From contig BCKE01000066.1 in NCBI GenBank assembly GCA_001600495.1, forward strand, positions 176,245 through 240,244: a stretch of 64,000 bases of DNA, given 5' to 3'. Shown one piece after another: positions 26,924 to 45,015 of this stretch (position 1 is the stretch's first letter; each line of letters starts with the position of its first letter). The notes below the pieces were generated by a model, which was not told where the DNA came from, ran no database searches, and saw only the letters and a list, made by a program, of their open reading frames with translations. The stretch comes from Pilasporangium apinafurcum. Lineage: Eukaryota; Oomycota; Peronosporomycetes; Pythiales; Pythiaceae. Position numbers and translations under genes: made by a program.

Positions 26924-27865
26924 CTATCTCTTAACCCACTGGAATTTCTTTCTCGCCTTCGGCTGACCCGGCTTCTTTCGTTCAACCATTCTCGGATCTC
27001 TCGTGAGCAACCCTTCCTTCTTGAGCGCTGGACGGTACGCTGGGTCAAAGTGTTGCAGCGCCCGCGCGATACCATGACGTATAGCACCTGCTTGGCCAGT
27101 CAACCCTCCACCTTTCACAGTGCAGTAGACGTCGAACTGGCCGATCTCGTCGACGACCGAGAACGGCTTTAGCACGTCTTCACGGTAGGTATCGCGCACA
27201 AAATAGTCCACGAGATCCTTCTTGTTGATGAAGATACGCCCGCCGTACGGAGATTCGCTCTTCTTCACCCACACACGTGCGGTACTGGTCTTACGGCGAC
27301 CCGTGCCATATGCGCGGCCAAACTCGTCCACCTTGCGCACTCGCACGACGTTCTTCTTGGCTTCTTCCATGGCACGACGCGCCAACTTCGCACGCATACG
27401 CTTCTCTTCATTAATGGCACTCAGATCGCGTACAGACTGGAGCCACGTCGGTACACCTTCTTCCGTCACAGCGTCTAGGTCCCCATCAAACCCTTGCCAA
27501 TCCTCAGAATCGAGTGCGCCCCATCGCTCTTCGTCCCAATCGTCATCCTCATCCACTTCTTCTTCAGAAAGCGTGTTAGCCTTGGCACGAAGATTTTCTT
27601 CTTCCTCTTCTTCGGAATCTGAATCATCGTCAGAATCGAAAGAATCGTCCGATGCGGAATGCTTTGGAGGCTTCGAGTTCGTGTTCTGGCTGAACGATCG
27701 AACGGCAGTCATCGCGGACTGCACACTTCGCGGCACCACCACCGCATTCTGCGACACGAAAGACACACCTGCACGCGCGCAATAAGGAGCATCAGCAGCT
27801 CTGGCGAGAGAGTTGACGCTCGCGCGTCCTACCAAACGCTTCGCGCTCGCCACCAGCAGCTTCAT
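26924..27865 (-). CDS. MRPS9: mitochondrial ribosomal protein uS9m
   Basis: 313 residues from the ATG ending at 27865, which starts MKLLVASAKRLVGRAS, a good mitochondrial targeting sequence. An ATG 11 codons upstream (27898) is less likely. A Ser/Asp/Glu-rich segment (about 70-115) separates the leader from the uS9 domain. That domain shows YGTGRRKTSTARVWVKKS, GRIFINKKDLVDYF, GQFDVYCTVKGGGLTGQAGA and HGIARAL, ending with a basic tail that normally reaches the decoding site. Convergent with SNF7. Confidence 0.93.
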   Translation of the reverse strand: MKLLVASAKRLVGRASVNSLARAADAPYCARAGVSFVSQNAVVVPRSVQSAMTAVRSFSQNTNSKPPKHSASDDSFDSDDDSDSEEEEEENLRAKANTLSEEEVDEDDDWDEERWGALDSEDWQGFDGDLDAVTEEGVPTWLQSVRDLSAINEEKRMRAKLARRAMEEAKKNVVRVRKVDEFGRAYGTGRRKTSTARVWVKKSESPYGGRIFINKKDLVDYFVRDTYREDVLKPFSVVDEIGQFDVYCTVKGGGLTGQAGAIRHGIARALQHFDPAYRPALKKEGLLTRDPRMVERKKPGQPKARKKFQWVKR

Positions 27866-28239
27866 CGTCACGCAGATGGAGATAATTGACACACCCAAAC
27901 ACAGCAGTGAGCTGATGGTCGGTGGTGATCTACTGTATTTTAATCCAATAATATCATTTTATTAAACTTGTTATAGTTTCTATTGGCTAAAAATGAAAAA
28001 TGTAGCTGTTTATAATTGTATGTTGTTGAAGAGGTTATAAATTTATACAGTATATGATTTCTTTGTGAAAAGTCACACAGCAATGCTTGATCTTTGGCGT
28101 TGAACACAGTCTAGTGCATGCAATTATCTAGTGACGAGTTGGCTTTAGCGACGAAAGCATGTTTTGGCTGATGGGAAAAGAAGGATACGTATAAGTATTT
28201 GGTGCAGTACCCAGACATTCTAGCTGGGGCCCAAATCGC

Positions 28240-28831: not shown

Positions 28832-31800
28832 TCAAAACCGTCCAAACTGTGTTCTATCTTCTCCTACACTCATGCTTGGGGTAAACTGAGCCTTCATCAC
28901 TTCTTCATACAGCAGATCCTTAAGCGTCTGTGGATCCCATGGCAACTGCGAGTAGTCCGTTTGCATCAACTTCGTCGCTACTTCCGGTCGGCAGACCTGT
29001 TCCATCCGTTCATCACGCCATTGGCTCACATAAGGATGCTGCAGAGCTTCTTGTGCTGTGATGCGATGAGCGGGGTCAAACTGTAGCAATTTGTCTAGCA
29101 AATCCAGTCCGTCCGGGTTCGCCTCGGGGAAAATTTCCTCCCATTTCACTTTTTCCACCTTTTCGCTTTGGATGAGAAATTGTCGACCAGCGTACCGTCG
29201 TGCAACAGGGTTGTCACAAAAGCTAAAGGTTGTCGGTGTCCCAACCACTTCAATAATCACCTTCAGTTGATCGACATAGGAAGTACCAGGAAACATGATT
29301 CTTCTACCCAATAGTTCCGCAAAAATGCAGCCAATCGACCACATGTCGATGGCTTTCGTGTACATATTCGCCAACAATAGCTCGGGTGCTCGATACCAAC
29401 GCGTGACAACGTACTCCGAGAGTCCTTCTGCTAAATCACGGTCGTTCGCGTGGCGTGCGAGTCCGAAGTCACAAATTTTCAATTGGCAATCCGAGTTGAT
29501 GAGGATGTTACTGGGCTTTAGATCGCGATGCAGGACATTGGCCGAATGCAAGTAGTTGATACCGCATAAAAGCTGGTAGATGAAATATTGTATTTGGTCA
29601 TCACTCAGATACTCTTTCGAGTGGATCACTCGACACAAATCCATCTCCATCAGCGGTTGGATGATATACAAATCCTCGAAATGATCATAGTCAAGTGGTT
29701 TCTGGAGCTCATGGATACCCATCAAACAAGGATGGAAACCGATTTCATTCATCAGCCGGATCTCTCGTAAAGCCAGCATGGCGACTTTTGGATGACGAAG
29801 GAATTGGCCCAATTTCTTAATGGCATATGTGCCTCCATTAACGAAATCGCTAGCAGCAATCACTTCGCCATAAGTGCCTTTTCCCACGATCTTGACCATC
29901 CGATACTTTTCAGAAAGCTGATATCGCACGCCGTTGATCACAAATTGATGCATCACTTCTTCTTGTTCTGCCGCAGGCGATGCTACGAACCGTGCTGCAT
30001 TCGTAAACGCCCGAAAACTGCTGTTACTACTGCGGGAGTTTGTCGTCGAGGATTCGCTTGCATCGTCTGAAAAGCTACTTCCTCGATAACCTGAAGAGCG
30101 CAATGACGACTCACGCTGCGAACGTCTTGCGGCGGAAAGCGACGAAATCGTTAATCCGAGCTGAAGTTTGCCGAAAAAGCTCTGGTGGTCATTGGACAAC
30201 ACATAACTCTGGGTTTCCATCATCAAATCTGAGTTATTACCATTCTTGCGATTTTTTCTTCGTCGACTATTGGTGTTAATCTTGTCGTTCAAAAAACTCG
30301 CCAAGTTGACATGCGTTCGTGCTATGACTTCTCGGTTAGCATCACGACAAAATTCGATCAACAGGATTGTGTTATCGTCACGAGATAGTCGATCGAATTG
30401 CAGATGGAGCATCTGGTTGTAGACGTAGACTAAAGACCCATCTTTACTTGGAATAGACTCCGCTTTCCCACTAGTCGAATTGGTTTCACCAACATCAGTG
30501 GAGCAATCGAGAGGAGCAGTGGAGCGCGACTGTGCTTCTGTATGCCAAACGCCTTCAAATTCATTTGTATCCAGCGAACATCGAACGAAAAATTTCTGGG
30601 GGAATACCGTTCGCAGTAAGAACGTGAGAACATAAACATAATTAACGAAAGAAGACAGGAGAGAAGAATGGGAGAGTGACTTACATCTTTCTGAAATTCT
30701 GAGTGGCGTACGCCGCTGATCTGTTGGAGAAGGACGGAAACAGTGTACCCACCGACAAAAGACTCACGGATCCGCTCCGAAAGCGATGGCAATGTAAGAT
30801 TTGTGGTGAATCCTGGTGCTTTGAATACCACACCAGATGCGACGACATCACCAAAAATCTCCCATCGACTAGCAAGCCCACCGCCGTTGGGTTTGAAATG
30901 AAGCTTATGTGTCCATTGCTGCATGAATGTCGTCTGGTTGTAGCGCACTTGCATTGTTTCTCGTCCAGATACGACCACGATGCGATTATGCTGCTTCGTA
31001 GAGCTCTCTTCTTCTTCGATGTCGATTACTTCAACACTGAATTGTTGGAAACTCACCGACTGTGATAGTCTTGTGAAATACTCTAATACGCCGTTGTACC
31101 CACGATACTTGCCTTCAAATGGCACCATCGGTAGATAGTTAGAGCGTAGAATGATATCAGGGCTCAATAACGAGAAAAAACGTGTGATGATATGATCCAT
31201 CGGTGGAAACACACTGCTTTTGCTGATAGGATGATTCGGTTCAACTGCAGTGAAAATCGATTGGATTTTTTTGCTGCTACTGCTACTCGTACCGGATCCA
31301 TTGGAGATCCCCATGCTAGCGCGTTCAGTCGTCACAATCCCTGCAGTTTGTTGTGCAAATTCGGCTCCACTCGTTCCATTAGTAGTAGCAGCGATATATG
31401 CGTCCACGTTTACGCGATCTGACAACGCCGCGTAGAAATATTCGTAACCAGCATAAAAGTGCTGAATATTTGTGCATAAATTCTTGGCTGATGGCCACAA
31501 AGCCCCTGAGAGATCAAAATTTTGGATCGCATTGGCCGCATACTGCAGCCAAACGTACTTAGTTGCTTCCGAGTTCGTTCGGAAATGCAGTTGATGGCCT
31601 TTCTCCGTTTCCAGCGTGAAGCGAAATTGTGAGCACGTTTCACGGTCTTGCTGGGCCTCTTTTGTATTCGAAGATTGTGTGATTGACGCAGTTGAAGAAG
31701 TTAAAGTGACGGATGATCCATTAGTAGTCGATGATGCTGATGGAAGCGTCTCCTCGACATCCCATACTTTAAAGAGATTTACGCGGTTGGAGAAACCAAA

Positions 31801-32067
31801 TTTACCTTTCTTGATCTTGGATTTCTCCGGTTGATGACGTGCATCTTCCTCGGATAAATAGCAATAGAGCGACCGTCCACGCAGGACGAAATAGTACGTC
31901 TCCCAGTGTTTGAGCCAGTCGGAGCGCTTCTGCAAATAGCCTTCCCAGTGGAATTTCAATGGGATTTTCGTGGGAATGGACGATACTGAGAGCGACGACG
32001 ATGGACGTCCAGCGGATGGAGATGCTTTGGGAGCGACATCCAATGAGATCTGCTCCATCGCCGTCAT
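28832..32067 (-). CDS. MAP kinase fused to PH, SnoaL-like and C2-like domains (one intron)
   Basis: Exons are 32067-30685 and 30595-28832, joined phase 0 across an 89-nt intron (GTAAGT...CCCCCAG), giving 1,048 residues. Order: PH domain (about 39-172; FHWEGYLQKRSDWLKHWETYYFVL is at its start), a linker, an NTF2/SnoaL-like fold (about 280-420; YRGYNGVLEYFTRL), a C2-like region across the splice (about 462-570; NQMLHLQFDRLS, LLIEFCRDAN), a Ser-rich spacer and a kinase (about 692-996). Kinase motifs: GKGTYGEV, YAIKKL, HRDLKPSNIL, DFGLAR and the CMGC-type VVTRWYRAPE. The activation lip is SEY, where classical MAPKs have TEY. Exon 2 is open from its first base with no stop, so treating the kinase as a separate gene is not needed. 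The start could also be 32058 or 32151. Confidence 0.85.
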
Positions 32068-32652
32068 ACAAAAGAGAGAAAGAGGGAGTCGACAGTTCCC
32101 TTCGACAGCTTCTTCACTTTTTCGATAATGCGCTCTTGGGGAACAAAGCATAACGAGATCAAGCCACGTTGATTACGGTCACCAAAATTTACATCCATTT
32201 TTAACTATTAATGGGATAAAAACGTATTTATGAAATAATGGCCTGGCTCATGGCTCGAAAACGAGACAAAGGCGACCAGCTTAGTTTTGTTGTTATAGTT
32301 GGTGGCTTCACAACTACCGTCAACTATAAGTGATTGACTGCAGATGCTATAAACACACAGAGTGCAATACAGATCAGAGTGACGACGGCTGCGAATGAAG
32401 CGCGAAAAATCAGTAGAAGTTGTCAAGCTTTTTGACCTTGAGAAAATGGGAGTGCAAATTGAAGAACACACAAAAAAAGAGGATATTATGTCTGGCTTTG
32501 CTGCGACATGGCTGAGCATGTGTGGACCACTCTAAAACTGGAGCTACTTCACACTAATTTCGATTATGAACTGCAAGTTTTTTCTGAGAAATTCTGAGAA
32601 TGGCAATGGAAAGACAGAGATCAGAAACCAAAGAAGCACGAAGCGCGTCGAG

Positions 32653-33768: not shown

Positions 33769-35156
33769 GTGATGACATCAGAGAAAACTCAGCTTTTGGG
33801 TGGCACTACGCTGCAGACAAGTGGGCAAGTCCATCATCATCATCACCTTGCATCTAATCCGATGCATGGGCTAGCAGTGAACGAGGGATTTGTGACATCG
33901 CTCCTCACTTTCCACACTATATGTCTGATCTCTTTCGCACTTCTCTTTGACACGAGCAACACCACCAACACCAACATCACGGATAAAAATGCAGTAGATT
34001 CCACTCATTTGCGAGGATCCTACACCATGTATATGGACGTCCATGTGATGATCTTCATTGGTTTTGAGTTCCTCATGACCTTTCTACGAAAGTACAGCTT
34101 CAGTGCCGTCTCGCTCACGTTCACCACCGCCATGATGGCTTTACAATGGGGGATTATTGTTGTGACGTTGGTTCACCAATTGCTGAGTAATGATAGAATT
34201 CGTACCAAGACCATGGACGTCGAAACACTACTCAAGGGTAATTTCGCGACTGGTGCGGTATTAGGCCGAGCCACCTCCACACAGCTGGTTTGGATGGTAT
34301 TTCTTGAGATTTTCGTCTACGCACTCAATGAGTTCCTTCTCCCCAAGAAACTACAAGTGATCGACGCAGGTGCGTCCCTGGTCATCCACACGTCTGGAGC
34401 GTTCTTTGGCTTGGCGGTTTTTATGCAACTTTGTGTGCCATCCATCCATGAGCAATACCACAACGCTTCACGCTACACGCCCGACATATTCGCCATGATC
34501 GGTACGCTGTTCCGCTGGATGTATTGGTCTTCGTTCAATTCTGCTTTGGTGCCTGTTGATGGATTCCGACAAGAGCGCGCGGTGATCAACACGGTTTTGC
34601 ACTTGCTAGGTCTTGTGCTACTACATTTGCAGCTTGCCTGTTGATCTCACGGGACAAGAAGTTCGATATGATGCATTTACAAAACGCTACATTAGCTGGT
34701 GGAGTGGCCATGGGCGCTTCATGTGACTTGGCGCTCAGCCCTACAATTTCTATCGCTGTGGGGTTCTTCGCTGGTTTGGTATCAACCTTTGATTATGGTT
34801 ACATCAGTGGATTTCTGGAAGATCGGATGCATCTGGCGGATACATGTGGTGTGCTGAACCTCCACGATCTGCCTGGAGTCATTGGTGGTGTCGTCTCTGG
34901 TTTGGCCTCCATGGGCATCTCGGATGGATATTATAGCGGCGAGATCCTACTGAGTATTTATGCTGCGCGCCATCACCGCTCAGCACTTGAACAAGGCGGT
35001 TATCAGCATTTGGTCACGGTGGTGACAGTTGCGATTACGGTCGTATCTGGACTGGTAGTCGGTAAATTGCTTAACTCCAAGCTCTTCCGCAAGCAGCAAC
35101 AGAAATATGAAGACGACGAGTGGTTTCATTTACCTAAAATGCCTCACCAGCTTTAA
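33769..35156 (+). CDS. Rh-type ammonium transporter with one frameshift
   Basis: Two overlapping frames together encode a full Rh glycoprotein-like channel of about 460 residues with some 11-12 membrane segments. Family text includes YMDVHVMIFIGFEFLMTFL, NATLAGGVAMGASCDLALSP, FGLAV and DTCGVLNLHDLPGVIGG. The first frame runs into TGA at 34642. To stay in register with RAVINTVLHLLGLVL followed by ATTFAACLLISRDKKFDMMH the frame must shift near 34615, equal to one missing base. This may be a sequencing error or a real mutation. The first pore histidine is kept (IHTSGAFFGL), but the second pore-histidine position (CGIHNLH in relatives) reads CGVLNLH. Confidence 0.8.
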
Positions 35157-44094: not shown

Positions 44095-44460
44095 TCATCT
44101 TACCTGTGGCACGTGGACGCCAGCGAGCTTCAAGTCCAAGTGAGCCAAAAGGTCCTTGGTGTCGTTGTCAATTTCAATGCTTTCCGTGTTGATAGCCGAC
44201 ACTTCAGGCACGAAGTCCAAACGACGTTCGCGTTCTTCTTCCTGCAACTTGAGCGAGATGCCACGCACTTGGCCGTGTTGCACACGCTTCATCAGGTGCG
44301 TGATGTAGCCAGCGATTTTGTTGCGCATACGCTTGGAAGGGATGATGGCAACTTCATCGCACACACGCTTGTTGGAGTCGAAGTCCAAGGTCAAACGAGA
44401 GTAGTACTTCTCGATGATCTTGATGGCGGAGCCCTTGACGGTCTTAGTACGAACACCCAT
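44095..44460 (-). CDS. RPS17: 40S ribosomal protein eS17
   Basis: 121 residues from the ATG ending at 44460: [20 protein letters not shown], then [43 protein letters not shown] and [14 protein letters not shown] are eS17 throughout. The frame is open upstream, but the start is fixed by the family. The end reads VHVPQVR then TGA. A GTAAGA at the end could also be a splice donor; no better 3' exon was found. Confidence 0.92.
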
Positions 44461-44703
44461 TGTCTCTTTCTTTCTTGATAGATTGTTGGAATGGAGCAGC
44501 TCCGCGAAAAGAGCTCTTAACAACTGGAACTCACAAGCACCATCCGTTTTCACCAACCAATAAATCTGTTTTCGAATATTTACTGGTAAACTCCACTATA
44601 TTGTAATTCATCTATACACTCATTTTCTATACATAATTCAATATGCTGAATTTTTTCTATACACTCCATGCTTATAAAAATACCCATAGTGCGTAGTCCA
44701 CTA

Positions 44704-44765
44704 TTTAACCTTTAGCCCTTATTTCTACCACGCGTGGTACAGAACACGTGAGACTAAAGGTTAAA
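44704..44765. repeat. perfect 12-bp inverted repeat with nested palindrome
   Basis: TTTAACCTTTAG (44704-44715) and CTAAAGGTTAAA (44754-44765) are exact reverse complements. Between them TACCACGCGTGGTA (44726-44739) is a perfect 14-bp palindrome. They lie between the start of eS17 and the end of the OB-fold gene. Confidence 0.85.
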
Positions 44766-45015
44766 CAAGTTTTATAAAATGAGGTATGTTTTAGACGTGA
44801 GCAGCTTAGATGGTGGAAGATGATGGAACATTTCTGTTCAAATTAGCGGTTCCAGGAACTCAGGCGAGCATGCTCACCTACACTAGTATGTCCACTATAT
44901 CCGCGTTCTGTGTGGCCCACTCCTGGCCACTGCTCTTGCTGTTTCTCTCGTTTTTGTTTCTTGCTATCTACCATCCATGGCTTGGGTCGTTGGTCAACTC
45001 TGCATCCTCTGTGTT

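What the first reader, a model, noticed from the sequence alone, without database searches (positions are those of the whole stretch)
28832..32067. One gene appears to fuse PH, SnoaL-like, C2-like and MAP-kinase domains
The two long minus-strand frames (30430-32151 and 28832-30412) look like separate genes, but a GTAAGT donor at 30684 and a CCCCCAG acceptor ending at 30596 join them phase 0. The second exon is then open all the way into the kinase, passing a C2-like region that the kinase-only start would cut in half. A MAPK that carries its own lipid-binding PH and C2 modules plus an NTF2/SnoaL fold could be recruited to membranes directly. The activation lip is SEY, not TEY. I do not know of this four-part architecture outside oomycetes; novelty is uncertain.
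Basis: partly seen in the sequence, partly recalled or inferred. Interest (0 to 1): 0.78.

Follow-up and report, generated by a model that had tools for sequence, protein, structure and literature searches.

The report
Four-domain MAP kinase, oomycete type
A signalling enzyme (an ERK-like MAP kinase) in what looks like an oomycete carries three extra modules of kinds usually seen on membrane-binding or assembly proteins, and the same genome holds at least four more kinases built the same way.

Summary
Two minus-strand exons (32067-30685, 30595-28832) around an 89-nt GT-AG intron encode one 1,048-residue protein: PH (37-183), SnoaL/NTF2-like (294-428), C2-like (438-614), ERK-like kinase (681-1039) with an SEY lip at 854-856. 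The best support is four paralogues in the same genome (C3, C10, C16, C64) with the same parts in the same order in single uninterrupted frames. SnoaL_2 passes Pfam's cut-off in C16 and C2 in C64; in the window protein alone neither does. The window gene has SEY, the other four TEY. It fits the published oomycete MAPK10 group (PlMAPK10: 1,082 aa, no intron, SEY at 894-896; PMC5852060), compared by lengths and positions only. The PH-SnoaL-C2 architecture was not described in the passages and listings I saw. Membrane recruitment is plausible but unproven: by eye, the PH domain lacks the usual arginine and the C2 domain most calcium-binding aspartates. The exact intron is likely, not shown: I had no transcripts. 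The species is not identified; 'oomycete' is inferred from the MAPK10 match.

The parts
30685..32067 (-). exon 1: residues 1-461 (PH, SnoaL-like, first strand of the C2-like part); upstream in-frame ATG at 32151 also possible
30596..30684 (-). 89-nt GT-AG intron, phase 0, 71% pyrimidine (inferred, no transcript)
28832..30595 (-). exon 2: residues 462-1048 (rest of the C2-like part, linker, kinase) and stop codon
31519..31959 (-). PH domain, residues 37-183, with a low-complexity insert
   Evidence: Pfam PH E 7.7e-7 on the segment; paralogue profile 53.6 bits
30784..31188 (-). SnoaL/NTF2-like domain, residues 294-428
   Evidence: paralogue profile 112.9 bits; SnoaL_2 in 4 of 5 family members at E 0.1 or better, best 2.2e-9
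30137..30756 (-). C2-like domain, residues 438-614, interrupted by the intron; the part in exon 1 (438-461) rests on the alignment only
   Evidence: leave-one-out profile 18.3 bits over 516-614; Pfam C2 in 3 of 5 members at E 0.1 or better, best 3.6e-6; family profile hits ferlin, PKC and synaptotagmin chains; alignment
28862..29938 (-). ERK-like kinase domain, residues 681-1039
   Evidence: Pfam Pkinase E 8.7e-60; best solved match E 1.4e-85, Mitogen-activated protein kinase 1
29411..29419 (-). SEY activation lip, residues 854-856

Best explanation
This is one gene for a kinase of the oomycete MAPK10 type: an ERK-like kinase behind a PH, SnoaL/NTF2-like and C2-like N-terminal block. Shown: the domain order, its repetition in four paralogues, and intact catalytic motifs. 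Inferred: an upstream MAP kinase kinase phosphorylates the SEY lip, while the N-terminal block places the kinase. The PH and C2 parts give weak contacts with a membrane or with membrane-bound proteins, and the NTF2-like part makes the kinase dimerise or oligomerise, much as the CaMKII association domain does (recalled). The protein would then be its own scaffold.
For: Spliced product open over 1,048 aa. Four paralogues with the same four parts in one frame each. Leave-one-out profiles find all four parts in the window protein, C2 only over its exon-2 portion. Intron first of 250. HRD, DFG and APE motifs present. MAPK1/3 (ERK2/ERK1) and fungal MPS1 among the closest solved structures (60 of 225 shown). 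SEY lip, long N-terminus and similar length as in PlMAPK10.
Against: No transcript data, here or for the paralogues. The C2 call in this member is weak (18.3 bits, about 20% identity to the paralogues). Pfam's own calls are patchy across the family: no PH in C16 and PH below cut-off in C10; at E 0.01 no SnoaL in C10 and C64 and no C2 in C3 and C16. By eye the PH domain lacks the usual arginine and the C2 domain most calcium ligands. The lip is not TxY, and the common-docking site keeps one of two ERK2 aspartates. PMC3019232 counts 15 P. infestans MAPK-like kinases, all with the threonine, so none with SEY, which does not fit the SEY orthologue that PMC5852060 reports there. Oligomerisation by the SnoaL part is analogy only. 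Single-sequence AlphaFold models were too poor to use.
Confidence: 0.7

Rival explanations
1. Two separate genes: a PH-SnoaL protein of up to 573 aa and a kinase starting at 30412.
For: Two long separate open frames. The paralogue profile scores the two frames apart almost as high as joined.
Against: The four paralogues are single frames. The homologous C2 stretch starts at residue 516, seven residues upstream of the kinase-only ATG at residue 523. PlMAPK10 is one 1,082-aa protein.
Confidence: 0.04
2. One gene, but joined elsewhere: another intron, or an assembly or real frameshift in the doubly open stretch 30763-30432.
For: 417 joins keep the frame, the paralogue profile separates the best ones by less than 1 bit, and coding signal near the join is weak. 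PlMAPK10 has no intron.
Against: GTAAGT donor, pyrimidine-rich stretch, and first rank of 250 with coding and splice scores together.
Confidence: 0.15
3. The N-terminal block is a protein-interaction or autoinhibitory module with no membrane role.
For: Missing PH arginine and C2 calcium ligands by eye (alignments).
Against: PH and C2 folds together are typical of membrane proteins (recalled); the C3 paralogue has an arginine at the PH position (by eye).
Confidence: 0.35

Closest known systems
PlMAPK10 of Peronophythora litchii and its oomycete orthologues (PMC5852060, passages)
   Same: SEY lip, C-terminal MAPK domain, very long N-terminus, similar length (1,082 against 1,048 aa), orthologues described as conserved over full length
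   Different: No intron there; N-terminal domains not named in the passages I saw; the sequence is not held here, so no alignment
ERK1/ERK2 (MAPK3/MAPK1)
   Same: Among the closest solved kinase domains (best E 1.4e-85)
   Different: No accessory domains (recalled); TEY lip; two aspartates in the common-docking site (recalled; alignment)
PAS-MAPK PITG_01203 of Phytophthora infestans (PMC3019232, passages)
   Same: An oomycete MAPK with an N-terminal sensor-type domain
   Different: PAS instead of PH-SnoaL-C2; TEH lip
CaMKII (recalled)
   Same: Kinase joined to an NTF2-like domain
   Different: Different kinase family; NTF2-like part is C-terminal and is an oligomerisation hub

Membership tests
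MAP kinase (ERK type) | kinase domain nearest to ERK-type MAPKs, with intact HRD, DFG and APE motifs | tested here: met
MAP kinase (ERK type) | TxY dual-phosphorylation lip | tested here: not met
   lip is SEY. I therefore file it under the MAPK10 group, which is called MAPK in print with this lip, and not as a canonical ERK
MAP kinase (ERK type) | common-docking acidic site | tested here: inconclusive
   DPSDE of the best solved match aligns with DERME
oomycete MAPK10 group | SEY lip, long N-terminus, C-terminal kinase | tested here: met
   compared by lengths and positions only
oomycete MAPK10 group | full-length sequence similarity to PlMAPK10 | not testable with these tools
   the P. litchii sequence is not held
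PH domain | Pfam PH profile | tested here: met
   30.0 bits against cut-off 25.1 on the segment; 23.1 bits for the whole protein; 25.2 in the genome scan
phosphoinositide-binding PH | K-Xn-[K/R]-X-R in beta1-beta2 (motif recalled) | tested here: inconclusive
   a loose pattern did match at residue 47, but through RGR, which I place after strand beta2; in beta2 itself KHWETYYF lacks the arginine (placement by eye)
SnoaL/NTF2-like | Pfam SnoaL_2 profile | tested here: inconclusive
   window member E 0.032, below cut-off; paralogue C16 passes it (37.8 bits against 27)
C2 | Pfam C2 profile | tested here: inconclusive
   window member not matched by PF00168; 3 of 5 family members match at E 0.1 or better, C64 over the cut-off
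calcium-binding C2 | aspartates in loops 1 and 3 (recalled) | tested here: inconclusive
   only one evident in loop 3, by eye

The most novel reading that the evidence does not exclude
Oomycetes (or stramenopiles) evolved a class of MAP kinases in which the scaffold is built into the kinase: PH and C2 parts for location and an NTF2-like hub for assembly. The SEY member is a divergent branch that answers to other partners than the TEY members.
Probability: 0.3. Interest if true: 0.7.

Novelty: new variant of a known kind. Interest (0 to 1): 0.48.

Why it matters
MAP kinases are usually small and rely on separate scaffolds (recalled). A multi-gene family with location and assembly modules in the same chain would be a different way to wire the cascade. 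It would give a testable reason for the loss of growth, sporulation and laccase activity reported when PlMAPK10 is silenced.

Tried and rejected
Single-sequence AlphaFold of the SnoaL part and of PH to the end of exon 1: mean pLDDT 35.5 and 32.4, no fold search made. Viral contigs with the SnoaL alignment: 13 pattern matches, 0 confirmed. Prokaryote genomes with most of exon 1 (432 aa): 8 pattern matches, 0 confirmed. Rfam over the window: 0 families. Kinase tree of 13 rows (seven MAPKs and six other kinase frames that I picked from the loci): the seven group together (98/98), but their inner order is unresolved, so the order in which the modules were gained cannot be told. I labelled C31 'PH-only' in that tree by eye; Pfam found no PH in it at E 0.01. 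Other MAPK-like loci were not put in the tree. Oomycete initiator motif (recalled): 23 matches against 17.4 expected, no use. Splice weights were generic values of my own, not trained on this genome. The five-member profiles include the proteins they score; independent are (leave one out, though the segment borders came from the alignment with the window) and the C31, C36 and C9 rows.

Full report
Gene structure. The two frames reported are present. Removing 30684-30596 gives an open product of 1,048 aa, in phase 0. The doubly open stretch 30763-30432 allows 417 in-frame GT/GC-AG joins; the reported one is second by a crude splice score and first among GT donors. With codon log-odds trained on eight frames of the same genome plus generic splice weights it is first of 250, by 6.5 bits; but coding signal near the join is weak, and at 30550-30461 the exon-1 frame scores 0.23 against 0.10 for the kinase frame. 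The paralogue profile does not separate the best joins (685.5 against 685.2 bits). So one gene is well supported and the exact intron is likely, but it has not been observed in RNA.

Paralogues. A search of the window's own 36.5-Mb genome with 664 aa of the N-terminal part gave 17 matches, two of them the gene itself. Four of the other loci (C3, C10, C16, C64) have PH, SnoaL-like, C2-like and kinase parts in one uninterrupted frame of 1,117-1,374 codons. This is the main evidence for the fusion. Leave-one-out profiles find PH (53.6 bits), SnoaL (112.9), C2 (18.3, residues 516-614 only) and kinase (419.6) in the window protein. Identity to the paralogues is 26-31% in PH, 31-44% in SnoaL, 19-23% in C2 and 48-54% in the kinase. 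Among the other MAPKs of this genome, C36 has a PH domain and C31 none that Pfam detects; the family profiles find no SnoaL or C2 in either. The seven kinases group together (98/98), with the inner order open.

Domain identity. SnoaL_2 matches 4 of 5 members at E 0.1 or better (best 2.2e-9), with C16 over the curated cut-off. The family profile finds two NTF2-like solved structures at E 0.016 and 0.019 and nothing else up to E 1. Pfam C2 matches 3 of 5 members at E 0.1 or better (best 3.6e-6), with C64 just over the cut-off. The C2 profile finds 25 chains up to E 1, mainly ferlins, PKC beta, synaptotagmin and rabphilin, with two that I do not know as C2 proteins (a DUF4270 protein and MED15). 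Scanned whole at E 0.01, the paralogues give patchy calls: PH over the cut-off in C3 and C64, below it in C10, absent in C16; SnoaL_2 in C3 and C16; C2 in C10 and C64. For the window member alone, SnoaL and C2 are below threshold, so they rest on the family.

Kinase. MAPK1/3 (ERK2/ERK1) and fungal MPS1 fill the top of the 60 shown of 225 solved matches. Catalytic motifs are intact. The lip is SEY; the four paralogues are TEY. The common-docking site is partly kept.

Literature. PMC5852060 (12 of 14 passages found): PlMAPK10, 1,082 aa, no intron, kinase from 748, SEY at 894-896; orthologues in Phytophthora and downy mildews described as conserved in full length, mostly in the kinase domain; higher in zoospores and cysts; silencing reduces growth, sporulation, laccase and infection. 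The term 'PH domain' does not occur in it. PMC3019232 (12 of 15 passages and section 8): PH reported on AGC, CAMK and CMGC kinases of P. infestans, C2 only on an AGC kinase, PAS on one MAPK; SnoaL does not occur. It says that all 15 MAPK-like kinases have the lip threonine, which leaves out an SEY member. PMC8036616, PMC9500583 and PMC3386981 (passages): 0 occurrences of 'PH domain' in each. Searches pairing SnoaL, NTF2-like, or PH with C2 or domain architecture, with oomycete, stramenopile or MAPK terms gave 2, 1, 0 and 1 papers; I saw their listings only, and none describes this architecture there. The original PsSAK1 and PsMPK7 papers are not held, so the architecture may be mentioned in them.

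Mechanism. Shown: the layout and the intact kinase motifs. Inferred: activation by a MAP kinase kinase on SEY, location by PH and C2, assembly by the NTF2-like part. Against a simple lipid-binding role, by eye PH strand beta2 has KHWETYYF without the usual arginine, though a loose basic pattern matched further on, and the C2 domain keeps few calcium ligands. I put the assembly and location role at about 0.45 and a role without membranes at about 0.35.

Noticed in passing
L009 (G000:C10), residues 1294-1324 of the 1328-aa frame: The C10 paralogue ends in a WW-like stretch (Pfam WW E 0.002, below the cut-off).
   Followed up: partly
L014 (G000:C9:113500-117500): A kinase outside the MAPK group (AGC-like by eye) has a PH domain that the family profile finds (55.8 bits) and a weak partial SnoaL match (10.4 bits) before the kinase.
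   Followed up: partly
L055 (G000:C12:8500-12500), frame 3-1829: A PH-like (by eye, not found by Pfam) plus weak SnoaL_2 (E 0.0078, below the cut-off) frame without a kinase: the block may exist on its own.
   Followed up: partly
G000:C2:5800-6378, C46:57719-58114, C3:887394-887852, C22:107198-107572: Other MAPK-like kinases with SDY, TEH, TEH and TKH lips; TEH and TKH were reported for P. infestans.
   Followed up: no
G000:C105:4150-4932 and 44215-44997: Two kinase matches with identical scores on opposite strands of one contig: a possible inverted duplication or assembly artefact.
   Followed up: no
G000:C101 and C78: Seven similar-scoring kinase matches on C101 and three on C78, perhaps tandem arrays.
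   Followed up: no
window 26924-27898 (-) and 33769-34644 (+): Neighbouring frames: a ribosomal protein S9 family gene (E 2.6e-48) and an ammonium-transporter-like frame (E 1.7e-19).
   Followed up: partly
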